Below, piece by piece: positions 23,907-64,000 of a DNA stretch of 64,000 nucleotides. The position numbers and the translations under genes are program-made. Where the stretch lies: NCBI RefSeq assembly GCF_026586795.1, contig NZ_JAPFGY010000017.1, forward strand, positions 1 to 64,000, written 5' to 3'. The notes beneath the pieces were generated by a model that made no database searches, was not told where the DNA came from, and saw only the letters and a program-made list of their open reading frames with translations. The stretch is from Erythrobacter sp. WG (GTDB taxonomy: Bacteria > Pseudomonadota > Alphaproteobacteria > Sphingomonadales > Sphingomonadaceae). How positions within the stretch are numbered: the first letter of the stretch is position 1; every line of letters starts with the position of its first letter.

Positions 23907-23910
23907 GCCG

Positions 23911-24837: not shown

Positions 24838-24881
24838 GCGGCCTTCGATCAGGACGGGAGCGTTCGTCAGGGATCCGAAGC

Positions 24882-25268: not shown

Positions 25269-25276
25269 AAAGGCAC

Positions 25277-25307: not shown

Positions 25308-25342
25308 CGGCCGCATTGCACGCGAATCAAAGGAAATCGCCA

Positions 25343-26092
25343 ATGCCCCAATCTGCCAAAACAGCCGTGCTCCATCGCATGGTCATGCCCGGTCATACCT
25401 GCCCATACGGTCTGAAATCGAGACACCTCCTGACGTCGCGCGGTTACCGGGTGGAGGACCACCATCTGACGACGCGGGAAGAGACCGATGCTTTCAAAGC
25501 CGAACATGGCGTCACTACCACGCCGCAGACCTTCATTGATGGGCAGCGGATCGGCGGCCACGATGACCTCCGTCGCTTCTTCGGCCTCAAGGTCGCCGAT
25601 CCTAATGCAACCACCTATCGCCCGGTCATGGCGTTGTTTGCTATGACTGCATTGATGGCAGTTGCGGTTGGCATTGCCGCCGACGGTAACGCCTTCAGTG
25701 TGCGCGTGGCCGAATGGTTCATCGCTTTTTCGATGTGTGTCCTTGCGCTGCTCAAGCTGCAGGATGTCGAGAAATTTGCGACCATGTTTCTCAATTATGA
25801 CCTGCTGGCGCAGCGCTGGGTTCCCTATACGCGCATCTACCCCTTCGCTGAGGGTCTCGCCGGCGTCCTAATGGTAGCAGGTGTCTTGCACTGGGTCTCG
25901 ATCCCGGTAGCACTGTTCATCGGCACGATAGGCGCAGTTTCCGTATTCAAGGCGGTCTACATCGACCGTCGCGAGCTCAAGTGCGCATGCGTCGGGGGAT
26001 CGAGCAACGTACCGCTCGGTTTCGTCTCGCTGACCGAAAACCTCATGATGATCGCGATGGCGCTTTGGATGGCAGCGAAGATGGTTGTCTGA
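25343..26092 (+). CDS. glutaredoxin-MauE fusion membrane protein
   Basis: A 249-residue protein. Residues about 8-80 are glutaredoxin-like with TCPYG (C20; the second Cys of CPYC is replaced by Gly, a monothiol arrangement), the cis-Pro in TTTPQTFIDGQRIGGHDD, and an intact fold. The rest is a MauE/DoxX-like four-helix membrane domain (MALFAMTALMAVAVGIAA, SMCVLALLKLQDVEKF, GVLMVAGVLHWVSIPVALF, LTENLMMIAMALWMA) with LKCACVGG, a Cys pair near the last helix. ATG 25343 has AAGGAAA upstream; earlier starts fall in the operator. Probably a membrane redox protein for metal-stressed thiols, controlled by the adjacent MerR protein. Confidence 0.85.
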   Translation: MPQSAKTAVLHRMVMPGHTCPYGLKSRHLLTSRGYRVEDHHLTTREETDAFKAEHGVTTTPQTFIDGQRIGGHDDLRRFFGLKVADPNATTYRPVMALFAMTALMAVAVGIAADGNAFSVRVAEWFIAFSMCVLALLKLQDVEKFATMFLNYDLLAQRWVPYTRIYPFAEGLAGVLMVAGVLHWVSIPVALFIGTIGAVSVFKAVYIDRRELKCACVGGSSNVPLGFVSLTENLMMIAMALWMAAKMVV

Positions 26093-49573: not shown

Positions 49574-51014
49574 GATCATCCGCAATGCCGCGCTTGCGCT
49601 GGCGGCCGCCAGCATGGTGGCGTCTCCGCTCGCCGCGCCGCTTTCGGCCAATGTTGGCGATAGCATGGACCGCTTCATGGATGACATGGGCGCGGCCGCG
49701 AATGTGACGGGGCCAAGCGCCTTCGAAGGGCAATCGGCCGGCTATTACAGCCTGGGCAATGTCTGGACCCGCTTCCCCCAGAAGACCACCAACATCGCCA
49801 ACCTCCAGCTGCCGCGTGCGCGCGCCGGCTGCGGCGGCATCGATATCTTTGCAGGCTCCTTCTCTTTCATCAACGCAGGAGAAATCGTCGCGCTGATGAA
49901 GGCGGTGGCGAACAATGCGGTGGGCTTCGCCTTCAGCCTGGCGATCGATACGGTCTGCCCCGAGTGCAACAAGATCATGCAGGAGTTCAGCCAAAAGGCG
50001 CAGTTGATGAACAACCTCTCGATCAACTCCTGCGAGATGGCGCAGGGGCTGGTCGGCGGAATCTGGCCTAAGGGTGACCTTGCCGACAAGGCGATCTGCG
50101 AGGCGATCGGCAATTCGGAAGGTATCTTCACCGACTATGCCGCAGCCAAGCATGGCTGCGGCACGCGGGGCCAGCGCAGTGCGACCAATCAGGGCGGCGG
50201 GGCGGACTATGCCGACGTCAATCCTGGCGTTGCGCGCAACTACACCTGGCACGTGCTGAAGAAGAGCGCCTTCTTCAATCCCGGCGGCAGCTTCGACCGC
50301 GAGCTGGCCGAGTATGCGATGACCCTGATCGGCACGGTCATCTACGTTCCGCCCAAGGACGACGAGCAGGGCAAGTTCGTCCCCTTTGCCGGCGATGCCT
50401 CTTCGACACTTGTGACCGCGCTTCTCGACGGAACACAAGGTCAGTCGGTGCGCGTGTTCCAGTGCGACGAGCCTGATCAGTGCCTCAACCCCACATTCCA
50501 GCAGATGAGCCTTGCGAGCGCCAAGGCAATCCGGCCGCGGGTCGCGCGCCTGATCGGCAGCATGGTCGAGGCGATCCGCAGCGATAGCGCGATCGGCAAT
50601 GAGGAGAAGGAACTCCTCCAGGTTGCCTCGGTGCCGCTCTACAAGATCCTGACCGTCCAGGCTGCTTACGGCCGGGGCATGGCGACCGATGATCGCAACA
50701 CGCTCGCCGAGATTGCCAGCATCGATCTTCTCTATGCCGTGCTCGAGCGGATCACCTCTGAGGCGGGCCGCTCGATGGCAAGCTTCATTGCGGCCGATGA
50801 AGCCAAGCTCGCGATCTGGCGCGGCCAGGTCGCCGAGGTTCGCGCGAGCCTCGCACAGCGCCAGGCAACAGGCCAAGCGCGGGTCTCGGCGATCATGCAG
50901 ATCATCGAGAAGACCGCGATGATCGAGAACATGCTTGCTGCCTCGATGTCGCCGTCGATGGCGGCCGCGCTCGATTGGTCGCGCGGCATGCAGTCCCGCT
51001 CGATCATTCCTTAG
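49563..51014 (+). CDS. traH: conjugative transfer pilus protein TraH
   Basis: A 483-residue periplasmic protein (signal cut near LAAPLSA): FEGQSAGYYSLGNVWTR, CGGIDIFAGSFSFINAGEIVALMKAVANNAVGFAF and CPECNKIMQEF are TraH signatures. It stabilises the pilus assembly platform. Ends 11 bases before traG. Confidence 0.96.
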   Translation: MTTRIIRNAALALAAASMVASPLAAPLSANVGDSMDRFMDDMGAAANVTGPSAFEGQSAGYYSLGNVWTRFPQKTTNIANLQLPRARAGCGGIDIFAGSFSFINAGEIVALMKAVANNAVGFAFSLAIDTVCPECNKIMQEFSQKAQLMNNLSINSCEMAQGLVGGIWPKGDLADKAICEAIGNSEGIFTDYAAAKHGCGTRGQRSATNQGGGADYADVNPGVARNYTWHVLKKSAFFNPGGSFDRELAEYAMTLIGTVIYVPPKDDEQGKFVPFAGDASSTLVTALLDGTQGQSVRVFQCDEPDQCLNPTFQQMSLASAKAIRPRVARLIGSMVEAIRSDSAIGNEEKELLQVASVPLYKILTVQAAYGRGMATDDRNTLAEIASIDLLYAVLERITSEAGRSMASFIAADEAKLAIWRGQVAEVRASLAQRQATGQARVSAIMQIIEKTAMIENMLAASMSPSMAAALDWSRGMQSRSIIP

Positions 51015-51025
51015 GAGGCGGAGAG

Positions 51026-53737
51026 ATGGTCGAGATCTTCACGATCGGCGGCGGCGAGTACATCGTCAATGTCCTCAACGCGGTGGCCGCCTGGACCGGC
51101 GCTGGCGGCTACAAGAGCCTGATCCAGGTGGCGCTGGTGATGGGCATGATCCTCGCGGTCATCACGGTCGCCTTCAACCAGGATTGGCGTGCCTGGCTCA
51201 ACTGGTTCCTCGGCGCGACGCTGATCTACATGTGCCTGATGGTGCCGCGCATGGACGTGAAGGTCACCGACCGGGTCAACCCCAGCCTTGCTCCGGCAAC
51301 GGTTGCCGATGTGCCGCTCGGCCTTGCGCTGATGGCGAGCTTCACCAGCCAGACAGGCGATTACCTGACCCGCTCGGCCGAACTGGTCTTCGGGTTGCCC
51401 GATGATCTCAACTACTCGAAGAACGGCATGATCTATGGCGCGCGGCTTCTCGAAGCGACCCGTTCGCTGCGGATCGCGGACCCTGAGTTTGCCGCTAATT
51501 TCGATGAGCACGTGCGCCAATGCGTGTTCTACGATCTGCTGCTCGGCCGTTACTCGATGAAGGAGCTCTCCGAGAGCGATGACATCTGGGCCACGATCGC
51601 ACCGGGGAGCGCGGCGCGCGCTCAGAAGTTCCTGACCCGTCAAGCGGACGATACCGTCACCGCATCGATCATCACGTGCCGCGAGGCCTACACCGCGCTC
51701 TCGGGCCAATGGGCGGGCCTCATCGACGAGATGGCGCTGATCACGGGGCGCCAGCTCTACCCGCGCCAGACCGAGGCGCTGGCCAAGGCCAAGCTGCTCT
51801 CGGATCTGCCGACGGCCTATCAATACCTCTCGGGCGTCTCGAAGAGTGCGAGCGATATCTTCCGCCAGGTGCTGACGATCAATGCGATGAACCAGGCGAT
51901 GCATGGCTTTGCGGGCGCAAGTGGCCGGGGCAGCATCGATGTTTTTGCTCAGACCCGCGCGGACATTCAGACCGAGCGGACCTATTCCTCGATCGCGCAG
52001 AACGCGATGAAATGGGTCCCCATCCTCAACGTCGTGCTGACCGTGGTCTTCTACGCGCTCTTCCCTGTACTCTTCCCGCTTTTCCTGATGCCCAAGACGG
52101 GGCCGATTGCGCTGAGGGGTTATGTCACCGGGTTCTTCTACCTCGCGGCCTGGGGACCGCTGTTCGTCATCCTCCACATGATCCTGATGTTCAAAGGGGC
52201 GGCCGATGTTGCTGCCGCGGGCGGCGGCGCGGGCCTTAGCCTTGCGACCTTCTCAGGCATGAGCGACGTCAACAGCGATATCGGCATCCTTGCTGGCTAC
52301 CTTGTAGCCTCGATCCCGTTCCTCGCAGGCGGGGTCGCGCGCGGTGCGCTGGCGATCTCTGGCCAAGCGACGAGCTACCTCAATCCGAGCCAGAATGCGG
52401 CGGAAGAAGCGGCAAGAGAGGCCAGCACTGGCAATGTCTCGCTCGGCAATTCAAACATCGACAACTCGACGGTGTTCTCGAGGCAGTTTGCTCAAGGCAG
52501 CCTTGCTCCCAGCATTGCCTATGGTGCCGGGCAGATGCGCAGCGTCAGTGACAACGGCACGCAGACCACGGGCTTTCCCAATGGCGAGTTCGCTGCGGTC
52601 CCCAACTCGAGCTATCCCTTCACCCCGTCGCTGGGACAGGATTTCACAGCACGGCTCGGCTCGATGGCGAGCCAGAGCCGGACGCAGAGCGAGACCTTCG
52701 CCAATCTCGCACAGCAATCGACCAGCTCAGCGCTCACCCGGTTTAGCGAGATCCGCAACGCCTACAGCCAAGGGCGCAGCTCGGATACCGTTAGCGGCAC
52801 GAGCAGCAGCGACAGCATCGGTACAGCCTTCAGCGAGGTCGACAATGCCTCCAAGACCCTCCAGCAGCAGTTCGGACTGTCCCGGCGCGCGTCTGATGAA
52901 ATCTCAACGACCTGGTTCCTTAACGGAGATGCGTCGCTGGGTTTGAAGGGTGAGCTTGGCCCTGGATCGGCGCAGATTGGAGTGAAAGGCGGGCGCAACC
53001 AATCATGGACTGACACTGACGTCGGGATTGCATCGGAGGATCGCAGCAAGATCATCGGCACTCTGAGCCAGCTCTCCGATAGCCGGAACTGGTCGAGCAC
53101 CCGCGAAGGCTTCTTGCGGGAGACGAGCTCGACTTCTGTTTCGCAGGTCTCAACCAGCGCCTCTGGGCTCAGCCGATCTCTGACCGAGGCCGAGAGCTAC
53201 ACGCTCGAAGCACGCCGGGCAGAGGAGATGGCAAATCGCCTTGAGGGCCAAGCCAGTTGGTATGAGGGTAACAGCGCGGCCGGGACCCTCAACCTCAGTC
53301 AAGCCTACCGCGAATGGGGTATGGGTGAAATTGAAGCCAACCGCGACTACTATGGGCCCGCTCGCTTCGACGACATCACCTTTCAGCTCAGCCCTCGCGG
53401 CCAGCAGCTGCAGGCGCGGTTTGTCGAGAGCTACGCAGAACGTCTGCAGGACACCATCGAGAGCGAAATCTCTTTGCCTCCCTTTGCGTCTGTCAGCCGC
53501 CCGGAGCTTGGGAGCAGAGATCAAGTGCGAGCCAGAGGAACGGTGGGGGCCTCGCGCGGAGCAAATGTATCAGAAGGGCCTGATCCCTCAGATATTGCTA
53601 GTCAAGTCGAACAAGCCCGTCAGCAGGGACGTCAGCGGATTGGAACCGTGAGAGATCAACTTGAGCGCAAGACCAACGAGGCCAAGGGAGCAAGTGAAGA
53701 AGCGGCTGACGAAGTGAAGGAATGGCCGCGTCCCTAG
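51026..53737 (+). CDS. traG: conjugation/mating-pair protein TraG
   Basis: A 903-residue inner-membrane protein: N-terminal TraG domain (VEIFTIGGGEYIVNVLNAVAAW), several helices up to about residue 455 (WVPILNVVLTVVFYALFPVLFPLFLM; GFFYLAAWGPLFVILHMILMF; GILAGYLVASIPFLAGGVARGAL), then a Ser/Gln-rich soluble C-terminal region. It handles mating-pair stabilisation and, in F, entry exclusion contact. ATG 51026 follows GGCGGAG. Last gene of the operon. The C-terminal 250 residues are shorter and less recognisable than in F. Confidence 0.94.
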   Translation: MVEIFTIGGGEYIVNVLNAVAAWTGAGGYKSLIQVALVMGMILAVITVAFNQDWRAWLNWFLGATLIYMCLMVPRMDVKVTDRVNPSLAPATVADVPLGLALMASFTSQTGDYLTRSAELVFGLPDDLNYSKNGMIYGARLLEATRSLRIADPEFAANFDEHVRQCVFYDLLLGRYSMKELSESDDIWATIAPGSAARAQKFLTRQADDTVTASIITCREAYTALSGQWAGLIDEMALITGRQLYPRQTEALAKAKLLSDLPTAYQYLSGVSKSASDIFRQVLTINAMNQAMHGFAGASGRGSIDVFAQTRADIQTERTYSSIAQNAMKWVPILNVVLTVVFYALFPVLFPLFLMPKTGPIALRGYVTGFFYLAAWGPLFVILHMILMFKGAADVAAAGGGAGLSLATFSGMSDVNSDIGILAGYLVASIPFLAGGVARGALAISGQATSYLNPSQNAAEEAAREASTGNVSLGNSNIDNSTVFSRQFAQGSLAPSIAYGAGQMRSVSDNGTQTTGFPNGEFAAVPNSSYPFTPSLGQDFTARLGSMASQSRTQSETFANLAQQSTSSALTRFSEIRNAYSQGRSSDTVSGTSSSDSIGTAFSEVDNASKTLQQQFGLSRRASDEISTTWFLNGDASLGLKGELGPGSAQIGVKGGRNQSWTDTDVGIASEDRSKIIGTLSQLSDSRNWSSTREGFLRETSSTSVSQVSTSASGLSRSLTEAESYTLEARRAEEMANRLEGQASWYEGNSAAGTLNLSQAYREWGMGEIEANRDYYGPARFDDITFQLSPRGQQLQARFVESYAERLQDTIESEISLPPFASVSRPELGSRDQVRARGTVGASRGANVSEGPDPSDIASQVEQARQQGRQRIGTVRDQLERKTNEAKGASEEAADEVKEWPRP

Positions 53738-53940
53738 AGGATCACATCATTCACAACTACGAATGCGGCGAAGGACGCGAGCGCAATCATAATGGTCACA
53801 AGCTTCAATCTTCCCCAAGGGTCAGCCCAAGCTTTCTTCCATGAGTAAGCAGTGAGGCGATTCTCGGAAATGGCGCGATCGAGCTCTCTCAGTCCCTGCC
53901 AATCCGGCTGACTGCTTGGATCGTCTTGCTTTGCCATCAT
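53734..53940 (-). CDS. small single-TM protein (68 aa) overlapping traG tail
   Basis: ATG 53940 has AGGAGC shortly upstream. The product has a charged soluble N-terminal half (DWQGLRELDRAISENRLTAYSWKKAW) and one helix (LVTIMIALASFAAFVVV). Its stop overlaps the traG stop by 3 bases in convergent orientation. In position and topology it could be a surface/entry-exclusion type inner-membrane protein, but no homology is recognised. Confidence 0.55.
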   Translation of the reverse strand: MMAKQDDPSSQPDWQGLRELDRAISENRLTAYSWKKAWADPWGRLKLVTIMIALASFAAFVVVNDVIL

Positions 53941-54174
53941 AAAGCTCCTGCATCGCTCTCGGTATCGCGCGCATGCATCTTATCACGATTTCTGGTGCTC
54001 ATGCTTCAGAATTGATGTTTGAAGATCCGGAATGGCTCCATCGGGCCAGTCGGTTCATTCCTTGCCGGGTGGAAAACGCAGCTGGTGGGGGTCTGAGTTG
54101 TTGCCGCAGTAGCTGAGTTTCAGGCCATGGCCAGAACTCATTGTTTTGTTTCGATAGACTTGCCCAATTGATTG

Positions 54175-54900
54175 ATGCAGAACTGTCCGGTGACTGCTCT
54201 GGTTGAACCTCTTTCTGTCGACGTTGAGCGGCTCGAGCGCGCGTTCCAAGAGCTTCGGGTGCTGACCAGGGGCATGACCCCACAGCCTGCCAAGCAGTCT
54301 TTCGATTTGGGGAAGATTGAGCGCGCATTCCAAGATCTTCGGCAGGGCCTGTCTCATGCCAAAGAAACGGGCGGCATCATCAACCCTTGGTCGATCGTCG
54401 GCCTTAAGCGTGACGAAGTTCGAAATGCTGGTGCGCTCGCAGGCCTGTGGCTCCCGGAATTTGGTGGAAGTGTCTCGAAGCGATTTCTTGCCGCGACTCT
54501 CGAGGCGGCCTTGCCGGATATCGACTGGAGCCGGGAGCTCGAAGCGGGTTATCGCGTCGAAACAGAGTGTAGCCCGATGGGCGATATCTCTGATCGGGTT
54601 GACCTCGTCATTGAGACGACCGGTTACGTCATTGGCATCGAGGTAAAGATTGATGCTCAGCTCGGCCCGCAACAAATCGAGCGATATTTGGCTTCGCTGA
54701 GCCGCCGTGCGGCACTGCTGCGGCGCCAATCTCGCGTTCTTCTTCTCGCGCCAGACAATATCAAACATCCGGGTGTTCCATCAATCACCTGGCAGGATGT
54801 CGCGCTCGCTGCACGATCAGCATCTCGTCAACATCGCGCTCCTCGCCTGTTTGTAGAGCAGCTGATCGCGCATTTCGGTGATCACGTCAGCGCATTCTAA
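54175..54900 (+). CDS. PD-(D/E)XK nuclease-like protein
   Basis: A 241-residue protein. The core DRVDLVIETTGYVIGIEVKIDAQLG (about residues 139-163) gives the D...E-x-K active site of the PD-(D/E)XK fold; QIERYLASLSRRA supplies the following Gln/helix. The N-terminus has an internal duplication (RLERAFQELR at about 19-28, IERAFQDLR at about 48-56), likely two short helices. ATG 54175 was preferred to the TTG before it; no strong SD. It is followed after 11 bases by the 206-residue gene, presumably a pair. Confidence 0.75.
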   Translation: MQNCPVTALVEPLSVDVERLERAFQELRVLTRGMTPQPAKQSFDLGKIERAFQDLRQGLSHAKETGGIINPWSIVGLKRDEVRNAGALAGLWLPEFGGSVSKRFLAATLEAALPDIDWSRELEAGYRVETECSPMGDISDRVDLVIETTGYVIGIEVKIDAQLGPQQIERYLASLSRRAALLRRQSRVLLLAPDNIKHPGVPSITWQDVALAARSASRQHRAPRLFVEQLIAHFGDHVSAF

Positions 54901-54911
54901 GGAGCTTGTTC

Positions 54912-55526
54912 ATGTCGCAAACGTCAGCCGGCGCTATCATCGTGCGCCACATCGAAGAGCTCGAAGCAGCTGTTCGGTATGCGCGTGGGCCGATGAGCAA
55001 GGCACTTGGAAACGCCGTAGCCGAATTACTGACTGATGAGACTCGCAGATTGGGTTGGAATGGCGACATACCTCGTGACCTGAACGAGCAGATTTGGTTT
55101 GCGCCAAACGAATGGCGGACTGCCAACGATTCTGAGGATTATTACGATCTCTTCATCGAGCTCGAGGACACCGATTGCATTGACGGGGGGGATACTAGAA
55201 CCTGGATAGGGACCTTTTGTGGCTTCGCAGGTGCCGGCATCCGCCTTGGCTTGGACACCAACGCTTTGGGGCCGAAGAGTTGGAAATCGTTGTTACGCAA
55301 AGAGAGTGATCTGATCGATCAGCTACTGGACGCAGGATTCCTGTGCGATGCAAAGAAGGGTGAGCTGGCAGTGCTTATGACCTTCGACCGCGACGCTTTG
55401 GCGCAGGCCTTTGCGGACGACGATTTCGACGAAGCCTTGCTTCCCTTGGCTCAGGCAATCGAACGGATCGTCAAGGCTCGCCCATTACTCGATGAGCTCG
55501 TGGGCCTGATCCGCCAGCGCGCCTAA
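54912..55526 (+). CDS. unknown partner of the PD-(D/E)XK protein (204 aa)
   Basis: No domain is recognised. The protein has a helical N-terminus, an acidic middle (NDSEDYYDLFIELEDTDCIDGGDT), and a helical C-terminus with FADDDFDEALLPLAQAIERIV. ATG 54912 has GGAG at a good distance. Gene order suggests it acts with the nuclease-like protein; it could modulate or inhibit it. Confidence 0.7.
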   Translation: MSQTSAGAIIVRHIEELEAAVRYARGPMSKALGNAVAELLTDETRRLGWNGDIPRDLNEQIWFAPNEWRTANDSEDYYDLFIELEDTDCIDGGDTRTWIGTFCGFAGAGIRLGLDTNALGPKSWKSLLRKESDLIDQLLDAGFLCDAKKGELAVLMTFDRDALAQAFADDDFDEALLPLAQAIERIVKARPLLDELVGLIRQRA

Positions 55527-55564
55527 GCCAGGTTGCGCACGAGCGTGATGAGAGGGGTGTAAAG

Positions 55565-57118
55565 TTGGGGGCAGAGTTTCGGGTGGGTGACGGGGACCCG
55601 TTGTGGACCAAGACCGGCAGCTGGACGATGGGGCTCGATCCCCTCGGTCTTCAGGCGACCAGCATCCGGATCTACCAATCGCTAGTCCCAAACATCACGA
55701 ACATTACCAACCGCCTGCGCTACTATTCCTACTTCCCATGGCTCGTGGGCCTCTACGAGAAGCTGCATCACTCTGACGATCCAGCCAAGTTCGCGACCTT
55801 CATGCGGCGGGGGGAAGCGTTGTATGCTCTTGCCACTCTAGTGCACGACCAAGAGGCAAGCGATGGCCTCGGTGGGTCAAACTGGGCGAGCCAGCATCGC
55901 GCCGAAGCGGCTGCCAATGGCATCGACCTTCGCCCTTACACTGATGATCGAAAGTCAGACGTGACCTACCTTCAGGCAGCGCGCGGCAACTATGGTGTTG
56001 CCTACGCGCCGACGCTCGTCGGCATGGAATGGCTGAGCGATTCCTCGGTGCCCGTCACGCAGGGCCCTGGCCAGAAAGCTGCGGCCGAGTTTGCGTCCTC
56101 CATTGGTCAGGTTTCCAGCGATATCGAGGCGGTGCTGCGATCTTGTGAAGCGAGTGCCGAGCAGCTTCAGAACATTGGCGCTGCCATTCATCCTGCGAAG
56201 ATACCGCATGGCTCGGCAGAGCAGGCCATTCTGAGGGACTTCCTGATCGGCTCCGGCGATACGTCCAAAGACGCCACTTCCCGCCGCTCGTCGATCTGGC
56301 TCGTTCTCGACCTGATCGCCAAGGGTGTGACCCAGGGGGACCTCAATGCCCTGCGTCAGGCCTTCTACGCGCGCTCACTTCCGGATGGGCAAAGCTACGC
56401 GCTCGAGAGCGAAACCCTCGACCGTTGGCGCGCCTATCAAGCCAACGAATATGGCCAGGTTGCCTTAGCCTGTGCCCTGAACGGGCTGATTGGCAGGCAG
56501 TGCGAGGAGTATCCTGATGGGATTGAGCCGAAGAAGCTTGTCAGCGAAGTCGTTGGCGCTGCCATGGCCGGAACCAACCAGAACTTTTCCCAGTGGGCGG
56601 ACTCGGTGGCTCTCGATGATGGCGCAGACGAAGCAGCGCTGATCACCCCTGTATTGGACAACCTGTCTTCCGATCATCCGCCATCACCTGAGATCATGCT
56701 CAAAGCACTCAAGCTCTTGGGCGTACTGTGGGCGAAGTGGGCAGATGGCAGCGGAAAAGTGAGGCCGATCATAGCAAGGGCGGTAGGCCCAGATGGCCGG
56801 TCGCTTGATGGTATCCTTCGGACGCTTGACGCAGCGAAGGATAAAGCGGCGGATGAAGCTTTGGCGGCCGTTCTCTTCAAGCACATCATCATCGATCACC
56901 AGGTCATCGCTGGTCGTAAGCTCTCATCGGCAGGGACCTTCACATACCACTTCCTTGTCGAGGACGGGCGGCTCAGCGAAGGGCTGCTAGGCCAGTATGG
57001 CTACACGACACCACGGCTGTTCAACCTGACGCGGGTCTTGCGTGACGCAGGCTATCTCAACGCCGATGGTGTGACGCGGGATGGGGAGGCGTTCCTTGAA
57101 CTCCATCAGCCTCTTTAG
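55565..57118 (+). CDS. unknown protein paired with the PLD-like gene (517 aa)
   Basis: Start TTG 55565 (weak SD). N-terminal GSWTMGLDPLGLQATSIRIYQSLVPNITNITNRLRYYSYFPWLVGLYEK is a striking conserved-looking block but belongs to no family I know. The rest is mainly helical without motifs; the C-terminus (YGYTTPRLFNLTRVLRDAGYLNADGVTRDGEAFLEL) looks like a winged-helix. It overlaps the next gene by 23-38 bases, so the two are translated together. Confidence 0.7.
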   Translation: MGAEFRVGDGDPLWTKTGSWTMGLDPLGLQATSIRIYQSLVPNITNITNRLRYYSYFPWLVGLYEKLHHSDDPAKFATFMRRGEALYALATLVHDQEASDGLGGSNWASQHRAEAAANGIDLRPYTDDRKSDVTYLQAARGNYGVAYAPTLVGMEWLSDSSVPVTQGPGQKAAAEFASSIGQVSSDIEAVLRSCEASAEQLQNIGAAIHPAKIPHGSAEQAILRDFLIGSGDTSKDATSRRSSIWLVLDLIAKGVTQGDLNALRQAFYARSLPDGQSYALESETLDRWRAYQANEYGQVALACALNGLIGRQCEEYPDGIEPKKLVSEVVGAAMAGTNQNFSQWADSVALDDGADEAALITPVLDNLSSDHPPSPEIMLKALKLLGVLWAKWADGSGKVRPIIARAVGPDGRSLDGILRTLDAAKDKAADEALAAVLFKHIIIDHQVIAGRKLSSAGTFTYHFLVEDGRLSEGLLGQYGYTTPRLFNLTRVLRDAGYLNADGVTRDGEAFLELHQPL

Positions 57119-59561
57119 GGACCTCGCGCGCACCGGCTTTCATACGTCCATCATTACGACCTACTCGGTCGATGCGGCGTTTTATGACGGATCGCTCCAC
57201 CATCGCTTGCGGGTGTATGGTAGCGAGAACAATATTCTGATGGCTGATGCCAATATGCTTCAGCGCGCCATCAACGAAACCCCGGAGTCCTTTGCAAGAG
57301 CGGGCGTCGCCTACGCCCTGGTTCCAGTCGCAGTGCCTGGCGCTTTTCATCCCAAGATTAGCCTTCGCCTCGGCAGTGACGCCGGCTGTCTCATTGTCGG
57401 GTCTGCCAATGCGACCGCAGCCGGGTGGGGCAGAAACCGCGAGATTGTCGGCAAGTTTGAGTGGTGGCGTAAGCGCTCTGATGGCGAGGAAACTGCCAAT
57501 CACAAACTGATCCGCAAGGCGTTCGATTATGTGTCCAGCTGGCTGGCGGACGCAGAGCTGGATGCTGTCAGACGAAAGCTAGAACTGGTCGGGCGTGATG
57601 CGGCGTGGCTCTTTGACCTCGAAGCTGAGCAAGGCCCTGTCGCGCTCAATGACGGTTCTTTGGTCGACCTCTTGTGCGAAGACGCGCGCGGCGGACCTGG
57701 CATTCTGAGCCAGCTGGTCGGATTGCTTGGTGGTCAGACCGTCAAACGCCTGACCATTGTGTCCCCCTATTGGGATGCCGAGCTCGAGGGGCTCCTGGCG
57801 CTGATCGATGCAATTCGGCCAGCGGAAACAGTGATCGCTCTAAGCGCCCATGAACCGCAATTCCCGATCGACCAGCTCGAGCGGATCCCAGAGGCCAAGT
57901 TCGCTGGCATCTTCAACGGCAATGATCGGGCACGGTTTATCCATGCCAAGGCCTTCATCCTCGAGACTGACGAGCATGACCATGTGATCTTCGGCAGCGC
58001 GAACTGTTCTGATGATGCGCTAGGCTTGATCGATCGACCAGCACGCAACGCAGAATGCTCGGTCTACCGCCGTGTACCTGCAGGACGCGGCCGCGAGCTG
58101 CTTGGCGTCGATTTCTCAGTGATAATTGATCGCTCCGATCTTAGAGAGACGCCCAAGGATCCGGTCCCACCGAAATCTGACTCGTCGATCCCGCTCGGGA
58201 CAATCGAGGCTGCGGGCAGCAGGATACGCTGGGTGCCGTCGCGCCGCATTGTCGATCCTGCAGGCGCGCAGCTCGTGATAGCCGAGGGCGAATACCCGTT
58301 CCAAAAGGCGCAAGGCGAGACTTACTCACTGGACCTGCCGGGTAAGCCGCGCTTCCCGATGATCGCCCGCGTGCGCCTCAGTGATGGCATGCTGACCAGC
58401 GCGGTTATCGTGAATGATGCCGTGAGCCTGACACATGCCGCCCCAGGCATGGGTGACAGGCGCCTGCGCAATGCGTTTGCGAAGGTTGAGCTCGAGGGCG
58501 GCGACTTCCTCGAGCTTGCGAGCCTAGCCGCCATCATCTTTTCCGAGACGCCGGACCGCCGCGGAAGAGCGAAGAAGATCATCGCTGCGGCCGGCCGCGC
58601 GGGCGGGAAGGAGAATGAGGGCGATGATGAATACGTCGCCTTTGACTACGACAGCCCCGAAGCCTTTCGCGAGGCGATGTCCGGTAGCGCTCCGTCGAAG
58701 GGTGACACGGATCGCCTCAATTTCGACGATCCTGATGCGGTCAATCTGCTGAGGATCATTCTACGCGGCATCGGTCAGCCCGAAAGCGAGGATGACGGCC
58801 TCTATAGTGACGAGCTGCCAGACACGGCCGGTGATGATGCATTGAACGACCCTAGCGAGGGGGCGGATGACAACGACACCGGTCGTGATGATCGGCCGAC
58901 GCCGCGCGAGCCGCGAAAATATAGCCATGAGGAAGCCGAAAGGCAGAGCCTCGACATTCACAAGGCCATATCCTGCTTCGAGGCCTACATCGCGCGCCTT
59001 GCCGATGACCCCGCCCCGCCGCCGCGCAAGCTCACAGCCGAGGTGTGTTTCATCTTGCGCTTGATGGTCGAGGCGTGCCGCCGCCCGATGCAGGTTGAGA
59101 TCAAGAAAAAGCCGAAGTCGCTGTTCGCTCTGGATCTGGTGCCGAAGGCGCATGACCGCGAACGCGCCTTCGTGATCCGCGTTGGCCGCATCCTGCAGGC
59201 ACTATGGGTCGGCACCAAGTCGAAGCCGCCATTGCTGTCGCGCATATCCATCGCGCATTATCAAACCGAACTGCCGTTCGACTGCTTCGCGATCGTAGCT
59301 CTGACCCGGTGGGCGCTGGCGCGATCAGTGATGGCGGTAGCGGGCACCAAGCAGTCGGGCTTGGCGACAGTTGTAACGACGAGTGCCATTGCAGTTTGGA
59401 AGGCGACTTGCGCGTGGCCGCACCTCGATAAGGAGGCCGAGCTTGAGTTTGTCGCCAAGCTCGATGCGGCGCTGGGAATCGACCCGGAGGAGACCGGCGC
59501 GCTGCTACGACACTATGCCGACCTGACCGCGCTGCTCGCCACCTTGCAACCTGCAAACTGA
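57081..59561 (+). CDS. phospholipase-D-like nuclease with two HKD motifs
   Basis: An 826-residue protein with two complete PLD motifs in one chain: FHPKISL with GSANAT near residues 89-114, and FIHAKAF with GSANCSDDAL near 286-312. Members cut DNA or lipids; in bacterial defence they act as nucleases. Residues about 506-610 are a long acidic linker (DDEYVAFDYD, EDDGLYSDEL, GADDNDTGRDD), followed by a helical C-terminal domain. The start may be ATG 57081 or TTG 57096; the latter has GGGGAGG upstream. It is convergent with the helicase gene, 9 bases between stop codons. Confidence 0.85.
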   Translation: MGRRSLNSISLFRDLARTGFHTSIITTYSVDAAFYDGSLHHRLRVYGSENNILMADANMLQRAINETPESFARAGVAYALVPVAVPGAFHPKISLRLGSDAGCLIVGSANATAAGWGRNREIVGKFEWWRKRSDGEETANHKLIRKAFDYVSSWLADAELDAVRRKLELVGRDAAWLFDLEAEQGPVALNDGSLVDLLCEDARGGPGILSQLVGLLGGQTVKRLTIVSPYWDAELEGLLALIDAIRPAETVIALSAHEPQFPIDQLERIPEAKFAGIFNGNDRARFIHAKAFILETDEHDHVIFGSANCSDDALGLIDRPARNAECSVYRRVPAGRGRELLGVDFSVIIDRSDLRETPKDPVPPKSDSSIPLGTIEAAGSRIRWVPSRRIVDPAGAQLVIAEGEYPFQKAQGETYSLDLPGKPRFPMIARVRLSDGMLTSAVIVNDAVSLTHAAPGMGDRRLRNAFAKVELEGGDFLELASLAAIIFSETPDRRGRAKKIIAAAGRAGGKENEGDDEYVAFDYDSPEAFREAMSGSAPSKGDTDRLNFDDPDAVNLLRIILRGIGQPESEDDGLYSDELPDTAGDDALNDPSEGADDNDTGRDDRPTPREPRKYSHEEAERQSLDIHKAISCFEAYIARLADDPAPPPRKLTAEVCFILRLMVEACRRPMQVEIKKKPKSLFALDLVPKAHDRERAFVIRVGRILQALWVGTKSKPPLLSRISIAHYQTELPFDCFAIVALTRWALARSVMAVAGTKQSGLATVVTTSAIAVWKATCAWPHLDKEAELEFVAKLDAALGIDPEETGALLRHYADLTALLATLQPAN

Positions 59562-59570
59562 CCCGGCGCC

Positions 59571-62500
59571 TTACTGTGCGCATTCGAGATAGCGGCAGAA
59601 GGCATTGGCTAGCTGCATTTGCCGCGGCGTTCGGCATTCGGCTTGGAAGACCTGGGGTGAGCCAACCAGGATTGTGACGCATTTCGCGCGCGAGGTAGCG
59701 ACGTTGAGCCGGTTGAGGCTGTAGAGGAACTCCATCCCGCGCGGCGCATCGGCATGCGATGAGCTCGCCAACGAGTAGATCGAAATCGGCGCCTCTTGGC
59801 CCTGGAACTTGTCGACCGTGCCGACGCGCGCTTGCGGCAAGCGACGCTGGATTTCGAAAACCTGCGCATTGTAGGGGGCGATGATCAAGATATCGTCGAT
59901 CCCGAGCGGCTTTTCCTCGCCTTCGCGGCCGGTCCATGTTGCGCCCTGCGCCAAGACCTCGGTCACAAGGTCGGCGATAAGGTCAGCCTCTTCTGGTGAG
60001 CAGTTCTGATTACCGGAGTGCTCGACGGGGATGAACCTCAGACCTGTGCCGCCTGCAATGCCTTGGGCATTCACCCGCTGACCTGAGGTCTCGTCTTTGG
60101 AGGAGAGTTTCCCTTCATAGAAGAGCTCGGAGGTATAGGCGCAGATCTCCGGATGAAGCCGCCATGTGACGTCGAGAAACAGGCCTTCATCCTCTGCGAT
60201 GGTTTGCTTGCCCGAAAGGAGGTGGTCGAGCGCAGAGCAACCAGCCCCATCTGGATGGCTCCCCTGCATCGGTTGGTCGAGCTGCTGCGGATCGCCGAGC
60301 AAGATGAGCGATTTCGCCGCTTGCGACACAGCCAGGACATTTGCGAGCGACATTTGCGCCGCTTCATCGACGAACAGGACATCGAGACATTCGAAGGCAT
60401 CGGAGATCGACCAGAGCCACGCGGTTCCGCCAGCAACGCTGCAATCAGCCTGGAGGGCAGCGAAAACTTCGGCATTGCTCTTCTTCGCGAACCGGAGCCG
60501 GTCTGTTGCCTCCTCTTTGGAGCCGCTCTTGGGCTTCTGAATGCAGACCAATGGCGTGCCGGTCTTCTCGGCGACCTCGATGACCTTGTTGAGAAGGTTG
60601 CGGATCACCTCGTGACCATTGGCGACGATACCGACCTTCTTGCCTTGCCGAACCAGCTCGCAAATCATGTGCGCGCCTGTGTGGGTCTTGCCTGTCCCGG
60701 GAGGGCCTTGGATCGGGAGCACACCCGAGGCGAGGAGAGGGGCGATGCGGACCCCGGCTTCGAGCGGCTTTTCACTTTCGAGCCGCGGCGGGCTGCCATC
60801 CGCAATGCGCGGCGCGACCCGCATCAGCATGTCGCGCGCCGCTTGATAAGCGTCTCCGCCCTCCATGCCGTTTTCGCACACGTAAGTCGCGAGCCTGACG
60901 AGGGCCTCCTGCATCGGTTCCGACGAAACATATTCATGCACAAAGACGGCTGTCGGGTGCTCCCCCGCCATCGCAGCAGTCTTCTTGATGTTGATAGTGC
61001 GCTCCTCACGGGAGATGTCTTCAACCGTGCCGATGCTTTTGCCGCCGACGGCCTTGAGCCCTTTGCCCGCCCGAATATCGGCTTCCTGGACGGGAAAGCT
61101 GTAACGGTGGATCGGACAATTGGCCGTGCCGCCCACCGTTTCAATGAAGGTGAGGCCCGACAGGCCTGCACGATCGTCAAGCAGTTCGTCGGCCGATAGG
61201 TCGCAAAGGCGGTAGTACTCCCACCAAGTCGCCTTTTCCTCGCGCCGATGCCACTCGAGGAGATTGGCCAGGAGCCAGCGTGCATGCTGCTCGGGGCTGC
61301 GCTCCTCGGGATCGGCAGGGACATCGGCGACAAGCTGCTCGATCAAGGGGGTAATCCGCTCGAGCCACGCGGAAAGGTTTTCGCTGGGAGCGCCATCGCC
61401 TGGCTCCGGCCGCGTGATCTCAATGCCCTGTTCGATCAGCTTCGTTCGCTGCGTCTCAAGCCAGTCGCGCAAGGCCTCGGTCGAGACGCAATCGTCGCGA
61501 TTATACGCTTCAACGGTTTGTCTGTCCGCCGGCAAGATTCCGGCTGCGTCGTTGAGCTCCAGGCTGACTTGCAAGCGGTTTAGCGCAAGGTTGGCGTCAG
61601 GCAGGCTGGCGTCGCGCACATAGCCGTAGAGCGGCTCCAATCGCTTGATCGAATAGCTCTCGACACCTGCACGCAGCGAATGCCGGACGACACTGAGAAG
61701 ATCGACAAAGACAAGCCCGCGCAGCAGCGCGTCTAATGCGTCCTCGCGGGTGCCATAGCGGCCCATGAGACGCTTGAGTGCCCCCGGCTCGTATCCGCCA
61801 TAGTGGTAGACGTGGAGGTTCGGGTAGGTCTGCAGTCGGTCAAGCACGAAATCGATGAAGGTCTCGAAGGCGGCCTTCTCTGCTGTCCGGTCGAAGGCCC
61901 AGAGGCCGCGATATTGCGGTTCGCCATTCTCGCGGAAGTGGAACCCCAAAAGATACTCGAGGCCATGCTGACCGACGAAGGAATCGCCTTCGAAGTCGAG
62001 GAAGATGTCACCATCGCAGGGCTCAGGCAGGCAGTTGAGCCCAAATCCAGCCACCGGCGCGAGCATTTCGTAGCGCAGCTCGCCGCTGGCCTTGCTCTCG
62101 AGCTGGATCCGCGCCTGTTCTCGGACCCGCGTCAGCGACTCTCTCGACCCGCGCTCGGGCTTCCATGGGAGAGGCAAGGGCATCTCAGAGAGTGCCGTTG
62201 CTGTCGTTATGCCGTGGTCCTTGAGTTCAGCGATCTGCAGCGACGAGATACCCGCAACGAGGCAAAGATGATCGTCGTCGCGGCGCTGTTTGTCGCACCG
62301 CGTGTTCCAGGTGCAGATATCGCAATGCGAGGTTGGTTCGGGGTAAGTCTGCGGAGGCTCTTCAGCTCCGATCGCCCCCAGAAGCCCCTGCTTCACCTGG
62401 CGATGATAGGCTGCGAAATCTGCAATCCTATAGCGCTCGGGCTCGAAGTCGGTCCACGGCGGGATCACGCTGGCGAAAAGCGGCATAGTCCCCTGCACTT

Positions 62501-62969
62501 CGCCGATCAGCTCGGAGTAAAGGCACAGCTGCAGCACCGTGCCGCCCTTGGTTTCTCGGGCGAGCTTGGTGTCAGCTGCTTCGTAGGACCAGTCGCCAAG
62601 CTGGCTCGGCATGGAGACACGCCGCAAAATGTCGGCACGCCCGGCCCAAGATCCACCGCGCAAGGCACCTTGGACAATTACGTCTACGCCTTCGCGCATC
62701 GCAGCGATGGTTTGGGCGACGGCCTCATCACTGACGTCGACGCCTTCGATGGTAACGATTGACAGGCTTTGAGCCCGCAGGTGCTCAACATAAGCGAGCT
62801 CGTGTTGCTTGCCGCGCTCCCAAAGCGCTTCAAGTGCGGGATCGAAAAACTTGGGGCGCGTGAACTCACCGCGCGCGGCGGCATGCTCGAGCTGGGTCAA
62901 ATGGCGACAGTTCAAATATCCGACGAGGTCGGACGCACTGAGCCGAGCGCTGCCATCTTGAATTTGCAT
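59571..62969 (-). CDS. RecB-like nuclease/SF1 helicase fusion (TM0106 type)
   Basis: An 1132-residue protein. Residues 10-240 form a RecB-like nuclease with Fe-S cysteines: C21 (YLNCRHLTQLE) and C-x2-C-x5-C in HCDICTWNTRC near 215-225, and ADTKL as the nuclease D-x-K. A middle RNase H-like DEDD segment starts DIFLDFEGDSFVGQHGLEYLLGF near 320 and ends YNRDDCVSTEALRDWL. The C-terminal SF1B (Dna2/Upf1-like) helicase has GPPGTGKTHTG near 753, LFVDEAAQMS, GDPQQLDQP, APYNAQV, VGTVDKFQGQEA and NVATSRAK. A complete set of motifs suggests an active enzyme that degrades or unwinds nucleic acid. Confidence 0.92.
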   Translation of the reverse strand: MQIQDGSARLSASDLVGYLNCRHLTQLEHAAARGEFTRPKFFDPALEALWERGKQHELAYVEHLRAQSLSIVTIEGVDVSDEAVAQTIAAMREGVDVIVQGALRGGSWAGRADILRRVSMPSQLGDWSYEAADTKLARETKGGTVLQLCLYSELIGEVQGTMPLFASVIPPWTDFEPERYRIADFAAYHRQVKQGLLGAIGAEEPPQTYPEPTSHCDICTWNTRCDKQRRDDDHLCLVAGISSLQIAELKDHGITTATALSEMPLPLPWKPERGSRESLTRVREQARIQLESKASGELRYEMLAPVAGFGLNCLPEPCDGDIFLDFEGDSFVGQHGLEYLLGFHFRENGEPQYRGLWAFDRTAEKAAFETFIDFVLDRLQTYPNLHVYHYGGYEPGALKRLMGRYGTREDALDALLRGLVFVDLLSVVRHSLRAGVESYSIKRLEPLYGYVRDASLPDANLALNRLQVSLELNDAAGILPADRQTVEAYNRDDCVSTEALRDWLETQRTKLIEQGIEITRPEPGDGAPSENLSAWLERITPLIEQLVADVPADPEERSPEQHARWLLANLLEWHRREEKATWWEYYRLCDLSADELLDDRAGLSGLTFIETVGGTANCPIHRYSFPVQEADIRAGKGLKAVGGKSIGTVEDISREERTINIKKTAAMAGEHPTAVFVHEYVSSEPMQEALVRLATYVCENGMEGGDAYQAARDMLMRVAPRIADGSPPRLESEKPLEAGVRIAPLLASGVLPIQGPPGTGKTHTGAHMICELVRQGKKVGIVANGHEVIRNLLNKVIEVAEKTGTPLVCIQKPKSGSKEEATDRLRFAKKSNAEVFAALQADCSVAGGTAWLWSISDAFECLDVLFVDEAAQMSLANVLAVSQAAKSLILLGDPQQLDQPMQGSHPDGAGCSALDHLLSGKQTIAEDEGLFLDVTWRLHPEICAYTSELFYEGKLSSKDETSGQRVNAQGIAGGTGLRFIPVEHSGNQNCSPEEADLIADLVTEVLAQGATWTGREGEEKPLGIDDILIIAPYNAQVFEIQRRLPQARVGTVDKFQGQEAPISIYSLASSSHADAPRGMEFLYSLNRLNVATSRAKCVTILVGSPQVFQAECRTPRQMQLANAFCRYLECAQ

Positions 62970-63036
62970 CTTCGTGCCCCCTGATAGGGGCCGTGCCCCT
63001 TAACTCTTCCGCGCGCGGCGACCCTCTAAACACCAA

Positions 63037-63055
63037 TGACGTCAAAAACTGTCAT
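63037..63055. promoter_or_regulatory. operator-like palindrome, copy B (helicase promoter region)
   Basis: TGACGTCAAAAACTGTCAT; with its flanks it forms CAATGAC (63034-63040)/GTCATTG (63051-63057), a perfect 7-bp inverted repeat with a 10-base spacer, 67-87 bases upstream of the helicase start. It matches the site at 31813-31831 at 18 of 19 positions. Confidence 0.7.
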
Positions 63056-63061
63056 TGCGCT

Positions 63062-64000
63062 TCAGACGACGTCCTTTGAGATGAACGACACTGTGGATCC
63101 GCGGTGATCTTGGATTGGCGGGATCTCAGAAGGGCGTCGTAGCTCGAGTTGCTCCGGAATATCTGACGTGAGGCCATAGGCCAGGAGCAGCCGTGATGCA
63201 TCGCACTTGAGGCTCGTCATGTGGGCTGGTGGGCTTGGCTGGATGACCTTGAGATCGCCCAAGGTTGGGCGAACCCGCGTGATGAACTCTTTGTGCACCG
63301 GCGTTTTCGAGCCGCCCCCAATCGAAATGAGCTGGACAGGGCTGCGGCGCAGTGTCGCATCGAAATTGCGCGGCGCGACGTTCGGATGACGCGCATGGTT
63401 CAATACCTCGCGGTATTGCTCAGCGCAGGCCAATCTGAACAAATCGTCGGAGAAGCCGCTACTGCGCGCTGCATCGAGAGCTGCGGCTCCAAGCAGCTTC
63501 ACCTCGGCGGCGAAAGCAGCAACGCGCACGCGTTCTACAAGGTTGAAGGCGACCACATCAAGGGTCGAGGCACCGACATCAATGAGGATATGCGCGCCGT
63601 CGTTGGCGAAAGGCTCGTTTGCGTACCCGGTGATCGCTGCGGTCAGCTCGGGCACGAGGTCAAAGCCGCCAGGTAGCTCATGGGTCGAGGCCTGGTAGAT
63701 TTTCCGCACCATGGCGTGTGTGAGGCAAGCTGCATGCGGCATGAGGCCGCGTGCGGCACTCACGATATGTCTGAAGTCACGGTAGGTCCTGTTTTGATCT
63801 TGGGCTACAACCGGGATGCCGATGTTGATCGAGAGGAAGTTTCGCGCTGCATCTAGGCCCAGAGGGCGGTGCTTTTCGTACCATCCCAGGCAATGTGAAA
63901 GCTGGAGAGCCAAGAAGGCCGCTGCGGCTTCGTTTCGCGTCACAGGAAACTCAGGCAGGACTCTTTCGCCGCCGCCTTCTGCCAAAATGCCTGCCTTAAA
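63062..64000 (-). CDS. actin/Hsp70-like ATPase (ParM/StbA-like), 5' end outside window
   Basis: The frame is open to the right edge, so the N-terminal part (phosphate-1 region) is missing. Visible parts: NIGIPVVAQDQNRTYRDF, PELTAAITGYANEPF, the phosphate-2 motif HILIDVGASTLDVVAFNL and the adenosine motif LISIGGGSKTPVHKEFI, in the order of the actin-ATPase fold. Such proteins act in plasmid segregation (ParM/StbA) or as chaperones. The gene ends 92 bases before the helicase gene on the same strand, with an operator-like palindrome between. Confidence 0.8.
   Translation of the reverse strand, partial: FKAGILAEGGGERVLPEFPVTRNEAAAAFLALQLSHCLGWYEKHRPLGLDAARNFLSINIGIPVVAQDQNRTYRDFRHIVSAARGLMPHAACLTHAMVRKIYQASTHELPGGFDLVPELTAAITGYANEPFANDGAHILIDVGASTLDVVAFNLVERVRVAAFAAEVKLLGAAALDAARSSGFSDDLFRLACAEQYREVLNHARHPNVAPRNFDATLRRSPVQLISIGGGSKTPVHKEFITRVRPTLGDLKVIQPSPPAHMTSLKCDASRLLLAYGLTSDIPEQLELRRPSEIPPIQDHRGSTVSFISKDVV

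What the first reader, a model, noticed from the sequence alone, without database searches (positions are those of the whole stretch)
54175..64000. Candidate undescribed defence locus: nuclease, PLD protein, helicase and actin-like ATPase in one cargo region
Between traG and the right edge are a PD-(D/E)XK protein, two unknowns, a two-HKD PLD protein, a RecB/RNase H-like/helicase fusion and an actin-like ATPase. Helicase plus PLD recalls Mokosh-type systems, but there the helicase is of another class and the orientation differs. The 517-residue partner and the actin-like protein have no place in a system I know. This is the best candidate for a new multi-gene system, by inference from content and place.
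Basis: inference. Interest (0 to 1): 0.75.

Follow-up and report, generated by a model that had tools for sequence, protein, structure and literature searches.

The report
Stacked defence modules around Azaca-like pair
What looked like one new six-gene phage-defence system is a stack of separable gene modules, the central one being a two-gene pair (an all-helical protein plus a PLD-type nuclease) that is distantly related to the known Azaca system, lacks Azaca's helicase, and sits alone or beside different helicases in different bacteria.

Summary
The genes are real and at the stated places, but they are not one system. Homologues show separable modules: A-B (PD-(D/E)XK protein plus 206-aa protein); C-D (517-aa protein plus PLD nuclease with two half-sites); E (TM0106-type RecB nuclease / RNase H-like / SF1 helicase fusion); G-F (an SNF2 helicase just outside the window plus the Hsp70/actin-like ATPase); then a BREX-related operon. 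C-D is the conserved core: D follows C in 79 of 80 genome loci (the 80th is cut by its contig end), 87 of 87 ORF pairs called overlap on one strand, and both nuclease half-sites are invariant. C and D are remote homologues of ZacA and ZacB of Azaca, in the same gene order, but no ZacC orthologue was found in 90 loci. C-D stands alone or beside other helicases: E in 7 of 80 loci (4 changes on the C tree), G-F in a sphingomonad clade, HsdR in some type I RM operons. Best reading: an undescribed two-gene Azaca relative with exchangeable helicase neighbours, a new variant of a known kind. That it is antiviral, and that the helicases cooperate with it, is inference.

The parts
54172..54900 (+). A: PD-(D/E)XK nuclease-family protein (PDDEXK_4), first gene of the separable A-B pair
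   Evidence: Pfam 1.1e-8; PADLOC candidate PDC-S26 1.6e-8; A-B found without C-D in L114, L120, L122 and next to C-D in L014-L016, L045
54906..55526 (+). B: 206-aa protein of unknown family, directly after A in the seven other loci where both were compared
55565..57118 (+). C: 517-aa all-helical protein, remote ZacA homologue
   Evidence: PADLOC ZacA hit (E <= 0.01) in 50 of 69 family members, best 1.1e-6, window copy 0.0084; an HMM of five alphaproteobacterial ZacA proteins hits 20 of 1393 ORFs, all 20 C-family; AlphaFold2 pLDDT 88.1
57081..59561 (+). D: 826-aa PLD-superfamily nuclease with two HxK...SxN half-sites, remote ZacB homologue, overlapping C
   Evidence: PLDc_2 1.5e-8; ZacB 8.1e-15; hhalign 97%, 4.3e-11 against ZacB; H90/K92/S108/N110 in 89 of 89 and H288/K290/S306/N308 in the 87 of 89 that reach there
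59571..62969 (-). E: TM0106-type RecB-like nuclease with cysteine cluster + RNase H-like domain + SF1-type helicase, recurrent but optional neighbour of C-D
63062..64000 (-). F: Hsp70/actin-superfamily ATPase, C-terminal half (whole gene is contig 63062-64939, 625 aa); second gene of the G-F pair
   Evidence: G-F together without C-D in Aminobacter pAA03; G itself lies outside the window

Best explanation
The region is a post-TraG cargo site of an F-type conjugative element that has collected several separable anti-invader modules. Its core is C-D, a two-gene module of the Azaca (ZacA-ZacB) kind without ZacC. D is a PLD-superfamily nuclease whose two invariant half-sites should build one active site; C is an all-helical partner whose gene overlaps D's and that most likely binds and licenses it. 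Proposed action (inferred): C-D recognises or is loaded on incoming phage or plasmid DNA and D nicks or cuts it. Where a helicase is encoded beside it (E here; G-F in the sphingomonad G-F-C-D operon; ZacC in true Azaca; HsdR in some type I RM operons) that motor supplies DNA translocation or unwinding, and in the case of E also resection by its own RecB-like and RNase H-like domains, a Dna2-like layout. Shown by computation: pair conservation, homology to ZacA/ZacB, nuclease motifs, recurrence of E. Inferred: antiviral function, DNA as target, complex formation, cooperation with helicases.
For: D directly follows C in 79 of 80 genome loci; 87 of 87 called pairs same-strand with overlapping ORFs when read from the earliest start. 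ZacA is the only PADLOC model matched by more than 2 of 69 C homologues (50 of 69); ZacB matched by 7 of 7 D homologues. Authentic Azaca operons (ZacA 1.3e-136, ZacB 6.7e-171, ZacC E 0 by PADLOC in L130; also L131, L133) have the same ZacA-then-ZacB overlapping order; profile comparison C/ZacA E 3.9e-4, D/ZacB 4.3e-11. Catalytic residues invariant. E-C-D in L031 and L033, C-D-E in L070, converging in the window clade; 4 changes on the C tree. G-F-C-D in line on one strand in pSF1, CAP-1, L018, L019. Defence context: type I RM, Zorya, Hachiman beside G-F, BR-like operon beside the window genes.
Against: Homology to ZacA is confined to about 50-85 N-terminal residues with modest E-values; hhalign probability is only 35%; the HMM of authentic ZacA reaches only 20 of the 87 C proteins at 1e-3; the PADLOC ZacA model searched against the window's own genome finds nothing at 0.001. 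Many C-D loci have no recognised helicase within 6 kb (16 of 80 stretches are under 15 kb), so the helicase part of the mechanism may be irrelevant. E, A-B and G-F can live without C-D, so their nearness may be mere defence-island clustering. The 103 neighbour proteins scanned were thinly defence-like (for example N6_Mtase in 3 of 103). No phage data were found for any of these genes.
Confidence: 0.66

Rival explanations
1. One integrated new multi-gene system (A to G acting together), with the window arrangement as its full form.
For: A-B-C-D-E is kept together in L014, L015 and L016 with 50-83% identity; tight spacing: A/B 5 bp, B/C 38 bp, C/D overlap, D/E 9 bp apart.
Against: Those loci are near relatives, close on the C tree, so shared descent suffices; L017 of the same clade has no A or B match; 73 of 80 loci have no E at 54% identity or more and 76 of 80 no A match (E 1e-3) in the stretch held (16 of 80 stretches are under 15 kb); E, A-B and G-F occur without C-D.
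Confidence: 0.08
2. C-D plus E is the functional unit here: a three-gene Azaca-type system in which the TM0106 helicase-nuclease has replaced ZacC.
For: E within about 10 kb of C-D in 7 of 80 loci at 54% identity or more against 1 of 384 other class genomes with such an E anywhere (Fisher 2.5e-5, or 0.015 without the window clade); E-C-D and C-D-E in line, E and C overlapping by 1-4 bases in L033 depending on the start; 4 changes on the C tree.
Against: In the window E is on the opposite strand; no C or D near E in 8 of 8 other genomes, in stretches of 10-20 kb; by the laxer yardstick E <= 1e-50, 8 of 384 genomes have an E homologue; most C-D lack E; the two samples are not drawn alike; the 4 changes are gains or losses on a quick tree with many open forks and a long L070 branch, and the starred branches alone do not rule out one origin.
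Confidence: 0.33
3. C-D is a Mokosh-type system (helicase plus PLD).
For: E's best PADLOC match is MkoA, 1.2e-40; PLD domain present.
Against: The best stretch covers the helicase core only (residues 825-1126); D has no MkoB match up to E 1; C has no counterpart that I know of in Mokosh; many C-D loci have no recognised helicase near.
Confidence: 0.03
4. C-D is not defence but a plasmid/ICE maintenance or DNA-processing module.
For: Found on plasmids (13 of 72,556 records; 6 mobilizable, 4 conjugative) and directly after TraG in several elements.
Against: Also on a complete chromosome (L034, Cupriavidus necator) and inside a type I RM operon; relatives in Azaca, treated as a defence system; defence genes are known to collect by TraG (PMC12629846).
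Confidence: 0.12

Closest known systems
Azaca (ZacA-ZacB-ZacC)
   Same: C and D are remote homologues of ZacA and ZacB in the same order with overlapping genes; ZacB is PLD-like too (PLD in Azaca per PMC10952713, passage).
   Different: No ZacC orthologue in the 90 loci examined; C is 517 aa against about 392-412 for ZacA, D 826 against about 617-667; C shares only the N-terminal block; neighbouring helicases, where present, differ.
PADLOC candidate PDC-M27 (unnamed candidate system)
   Same: D matches PDC-M27B 2e-8; authentic ZacC matches PDC-M27C 4.4e-23, so PDC-M27 seems a further relative of the PLD-plus-helicase theme.
   Different: C has no PDC-M27 match; not examined further.
Mokosh types I and II
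   Same: Pairing of a helicase with a PLD protein nearby.
   Different: D does not match MkoB; E carries RecB-like and RNase H-like domains.
DISARM (DrmD, DrmC)
   Same: G matches a PADLOC DrmD model over its full length (1.6e-223); D has weak DrmC matches (0.0043).
   Different: No DrmB match, and DrmA matches only at the level of a shared helicase core; G pairs with an actin-like ATPase instead.
TM0106-family RecB-like nucleases and the eukaryotic Dna2 layout
   Same: E scores 246 bits on TIGR03491; RecB-like nuclease with cysteines plus helicase in one chain.
   Different: Extra RNase H-like domain; the Dna2 resemblance is recalled, not tested.
BREX-related (BR) Type-3 systems
   Same: The operon right of the window has a DUF499 ATPase, a PglZ-like protein, an N6-MTase, a small protein and an SNF2 helicase (type described in PMC12839542, named sections).
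   Different: It is a neighbour, not part of C-D; PglZ and iSTAND assignments are weak here.

Membership tests
Azaca | ZacA homologue present | tested here: met
   Remote only: PADLOC ZacA in 50 of 69 members at E <= 0.01, best 1.1e-6, 0.0084 for the window copy; HMM of authentic ZacA gives 1.4e-4 for the window copy, 20 hits, all in the C family of 87. Against: hhalign probability 35%; own genome not found at 0.001 with the PADLOC model
Azaca | ZacB (PLD-like) homologue directly after ZacA | tested here: met
   8.1e-15, 7 of 7, hhalign 97%; order as in authentic operons
Azaca | ZacC helicase orthologue as third gene | tested here: not met
   An HMM of three authentic ZacC proteins finds only superfamily-level SNF2 matches (10 hits, best 2.6e-9, to G) among 1393 ORFs of 90 loci; E is of another helicase type
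Azaca | Anti-phage activity | not testable with these tools
   needs phage challenge
Mokosh | MkoB-type PLD protein, or MkoC fusion with PLD | tested here: not met
   D has no MkoB match up to E 1; E's best MkoA and MkoC stretches lie in the helicase core and E has no PLD match
DISARM | DrmA and DrmB present with the locus | tested here: not met
   No DrmB match among A-G and the downstream operon in the tables shown (capped at 25 rows for the two SNF2 helicases and the MTase); DrmA matches only as shared helicase core. The rest of the genome was not searched for DISARM
TM0106 RecB-like nuclease family (gene E only) | Score above the NCBIfam TIGR03491 cutoff | tested here: met
   246.2 bits against 97.45, residues 11-504; cysteines, DTK and DxE motifs kept in the window copy and the six homologues that reach these positions
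Hsp70/actin superfamily (gene F only) | Phosphate-1, phosphate-2 and adenosine motifs in order | tested here: inconclusive
   DFGTSS.K, DVGA.TLD and GGG invariant in four homologues (motif names recalled); weak profile match to DnaK at the phosphate-2 block (0.0045, probability 7.7%), FtsA 0.076, control MreC 0.72; no Pfam match; AlphaFold2 model failed, pLDDT 34.6
BR Type-3 (neighbouring operon) | DUF499 ATPase, standalone PglZ, iSTAND, DUF1156-type MTase, SNF2 helicase without nuclease | tested here: inconclusive
   DUF499 2.9e-7, SNF2 7.4e-23, HmaB-type MTase 1.7e-35, PglZ only 0.0024, the 166-aa protein unmatched; no DUF1156 match in Pfam at 0.01

The most novel reading that the evidence does not exclude
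C-D is the core of a general plug-in nuclease: a ZacAB-type pair that works alone or docks on whatever DNA motor lies beside it (ZacC, HsdR, the SNF2 protein of Zorya, the DrmD-like G with its actin-like ATPase, or the TM0106 helicase-nuclease E), so that Azaca is one case of a motor-swapping family; and G-F, an SNF2 motor with an Hsp70/actin-like ATPase, is a second undescribed module.
Probability: 0.25. Interest if true: 0.72.

Novelty: new variant of a known kind. Interest (0 to 1): 0.52.

Why it matters
Azaca is listed in a recent review among the systems of unknown mechanism (PMC12926258, passage). A two-gene relative that exists without ZacC makes a simple question testable: is the ZacA/ZacB-type pair already a complete nuclease module, and what does a helicase add? 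The family occurs in Pseudomonadota, Bacteroidota and Balneolota, and its C protein is matched only weakly by the ZacA model, so tools that ask for all three Azaca genes would probably pass it over (inference; no such tool was run). It also shows that gene content at a conjugative-element cargo site can mimic a new system when modules are stacked.

Tried and rejected
Single-system reading: rejected because the genes separate. Mokosh and DISARM membership: rejected on PADLOC models. Fold of C: good AlphaFold2 model, but Foldseek on PDB gave nothing at E <= 0.001 (best 0.038; the top rows are nearly all membrane transporters, TM about 0.1) and VIA-align at most Z 5.6, again nearly all transporters, over residues about 276-486; C's highest 19-residue hydropathy mean is 1.38, so I take these as chance helical matches. 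A missing match does not show a new fold. Fold of F: model too poor, not searched. PDB by sequence: nothing for F; for the C profile only chance-level rows, best 0.062; for the D profile one row, 'restriction endonuclease' 2c1l (recalled as PLD-type BfiI), E 0.37, not significant. Defence context by scanning neighbours was thin and the tally is per family, not per locus. Viral contigs: only 2 relatives. Literature: 'ZacA' + 'ZacB' and 'ZacA' + 'phage' gave no relevant title; 'TM0106' + 'helicase' + 'phage' and 'DUF6361' gave no paper; for 'actin-like ATPase' with anti-phage/SNF2/defense terms, the 16 papers listed hold that phrase 0 times; 'Azaca' listings led to passing mentions in the five papers whose passages I opened. 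PMC12458937 was seen as outline and abstract only. The paper that named Azaca was not among the listings; the link Zac = Azaca rests on recall plus PMC12278908, which writes 'Azaca (ZacC)'. I recall DUF6361 as a possible name for ZacA; untested.

Rows dropped: alignment A3 holds the window copy and 68 of 80 genome loci (L022, L023, L091 have a stop in the matched stretch; L029, L033, L038, L040, L049, L075, L079, L080, L087 were not put in the list). Tree: 87 of 90 loci (C of L045, L076, L087 not called as clustered ORFs). Neighbour scan: 110 of 359 neighbours drawn by script, 103 given to the scan (7 removed by me: four open-ended ORFs, one long ORF of L056, and the E and A copies). E count: L073 (36%, cut by the locus edge) is not in the 7 of 80. 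Background for A: 1 of 288 other class genomes.
Full report
WHAT IS THERE. The window is bases 1-64000 of a 79,093-base contig of a 3.3-Mb genome in 58 contigs. Its nearest C relatives are in Erythrobacteraceae. The window edge cut F and hid its operon partner: reading on shows F complete (625 aa), directly preceded on the same strand by G, a 1059-aa SNF2 helicase (PADLOC DrmD 1.6e-223). Then, on the plus strand, comes an operon with a DUF499 ATPase, a PglZ-like protein, an N6-methyltransferase, a 166-aa protein and a second SNF2 helicase, which resembles the Type-3 BREX-related systems of PMC12839542 (I read sections 28, 29, 30, 33 and the first part of 35).

THE CORE IS A GENE PAIR. A scan of genome contigs (one genome for each of 84,980 species) with a seven-member alignment of C gave 95 relatives, 80 kept (the scan needs exact conserved peptides, so this is a lower bound). 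D lies directly downstream in 79 of 80; the 80th (L087) is cut by its contig end within C. With nine plasmid loci and the window there are 90 loci; C and D were both called as clustered ORFs in 87, and in 87 of 87 they lie on one strand and overlap when read from their earliest starts. The PLD half-site residues H90, K92, S108 and N110 are kept in 89 of 89 copies and H288, K290, S306 and N308 in the 87 that reach there. The pair stands with no recognised helicase within 6 kb and no large neighbour in line in many loci, for example pPNAP03.

HOMOLOGY TO AZACA. C matches one PADLOC model, ZacA, weakly (0.0084), but 50 of 69 family members match it at 0.01 (best 1.1e-6), the next model being matched by 2. 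D matches ZacB (8.1e-15; 7 of 7 homologues). To test this I searched 289 alphaproteobacterial genomes with the ZacA model: 7 matched at 0.001, 6 strongly; the window's own genome did not. The seventh, G499, holds a C-D pair of the window kind. In L130, L131 and L133 the loci show ZacA (392-395 aa), ZacB (618-667 aa) and ZacC (1059-1077 aa) as overlapping ORFs in one row; PADLOC confirms ZacA 1.3e-136, ZacB 6.7e-171 and ZacC E 0 in L130, ZacC in L131 and ZacC and ZacB in L133. An HMM of five authentic ZacA proteins, run over all 1393 ORFs of my 90 loci, hits 20, all of them C-family (5.2e-5 to 7.7e-4, window copy 1.4e-4), that is 20 of 87 C proteins. Profile alignment shows a shared block of 49 columns that runs from the DPLG motif to the R-RY--F-PWL motif (hhalign E 3.9e-4, probability only 35%), and D aligns with ZacB over both PLD half-sites (97%, 4.3e-11). 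A ZacC HMM finds no orthologue in any of the 90 loci, only superfamily-level SNF2 matches (10 hits, best 2.6e-9); 16 of the 80 genome stretches are under 15 kb, so some neighbours are out of sight. So this is an Azaca-related pair, not an Azaca system by gene set. That Azaca has a PLD-like protein and that ZacC is an SF1/SF2 helicase comes from passages in PMC10952713 and PMC12278908.

THE HELICASES AND OTHER NEIGHBOURS ARE OPTIONAL. E at 54.7-82.7% identity lies within about 10 kb of C-D in 7 of 80 genome loci (L014-L017, L031, L033, L070), while 1 of 384 other genomes of the class has such an E anywhere (8 of 384 at E <= 1e-50). Fisher 2.5e-5, or 0.015 without the four window-clade loci; the two samples were not drawn alike, so this is a guide only. 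In L033 E and C overlap by 1-4 bases depending on the start, in L031 E precedes C by 31 bases, in L070 E follows D, and in the window clade E converges on D. On a quick ML tree of 87 C proteins the E label needs 4 changes, and the nearest relatives of L031 and L033 show no E. The changes may be gains or losses; many forks are weakly supported, L070 is on a long branch, and the starred branches alone do not rule out one origin. E stands without C or D in the 10-20 kb fetched around 8 of 8 background copies and in the two rhizobial plasmid loci opened. G-F precedes C-D in line in pSF1, CAP-1, L018 and L019 and occurs without C-D in Aminobacter pAA03 (G 40%, F 27% identity). A-B occurs without C-D in L114, L120 and L122 and downstream of D in L045. 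HsdR-type helicases adjoin C-D in Myroides, L050 and L086, and a Zorya locus adjoins it in pPNAP01.

E IN DETAIL. The window copy and the six homologues that reach these positions keep N-terminal cysteines, a DTK nuclease motif and a DxE motif, and the helicase motifs are kept in all nine compared. It is thus a RecB-like nuclease with a likely Fe-S cluster, an RNase H-like domain and a helicase of the IGHMBP2/UPF1 kind (TIGR00376 6.2e-27) in one chain. The Fe-S assignment and the likeness to Dna2 are recalled, not tested.

C AND F IN DETAIL. The model of C is confident (mean pLDDT 88.1, pTM 0.86) and almost all helical, with a short beta hairpin near 464-471 followed by two helices; I read the C-terminus as possibly winged-helix-like, an inference. 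No PDB structure stands out. F keeps DFGTSS.K, DVGA.TLD and GGG in four homologues and gives a weak match to DnaK at the phosphate-2 block (0.0045; FtsA 0.076; control MreC 0.72), so Hsp70/actin superfamily is likely but the fold was not shown.

PLACE. The genes follow TraG of an F-type conjugation set. L015-L017 carry homologous tra genes before C-D, and the Sphingopyxis loci L009, L011, L078-L080 carry TraG before a C-D of another lineage; on the C tree the tra label needs 3 changes. A TraG-bounded defence hotspot is described for Pseudomonas islands in PMC12629846 (passages).

VERDICT. Observation confirmed; single-system interpretation not supported; a new variant of a known kind is supported by homology and synteny. 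Function and mechanism remain inferred. After the recount two odds were lowered by 0.02 each (best explanation, and C-D plus E as the unit), because the own-genome ZacA search and the limits of the tree weigh slightly against them.

Noticed in passing
contig positions 68588-78824, right of the window (L002:8588-18824): BR Type-3-like operon: DUF499 ATPase, PglZ-like, N6-MTase, 166-aa protein, SNF2 helicase; the contig ends 269 bases after it.
   Followed up: partly
contig 63062-68121; L118:8463-13431; L005:15003-19876: A separable pair of a DrmD-like SNF2 helicase and an Hsp70/actin-superfamily ATPase (G-F), with C-D or without it; one literature search gave no name for it.
   Followed up: partly
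window 50975-54172; L009, L011, L015-L017, L078-L080: The site just after TraG of F-type conjugation loci holds C-D modules of different lineages: a reused cargo site.
   Followed up: partly
L008:8463-22311: C-D lies inside a type I RM operon (MTases, specificity subunit, C, D, restriction subunit) on a Myroides plasmid.
   Followed up: partly
L118 (Aminobacter pAA03): Dense defence island: TM0106 nuclease + AAA ATPase + restriction endonuclease genes, G-F, Hachiman HamA with a helicase.
   Followed up: no
L130:10260-13661, L131:10259-13726: A 1133-1155-aa gene lies directly upstream of ZacA in two Azaca loci; the L130 copy matches UvrD-type helicase models (RTasHel 4.8e-45, GajB 1.7e-37).
   Followed up: partly
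window 57081-59561 and L130:4089-7268: PADLOC candidate PDC-M27 shares similarity with both D (PDC-M27B) and authentic ZacC (PDC-M27C), so it may be a further relative of Azaca.
   Followed up: no
G219 (L004, L115), C homologue: This C copy carries an in-frame TAG, perhaps a decayed gene.
   Followed up: no
window 20760-26092, 29765-31093, 31944-32936: By eye: copper-resistance-like genes, a HipA-like protein and a WYL-like regulator in the same window.
   Followed up: no
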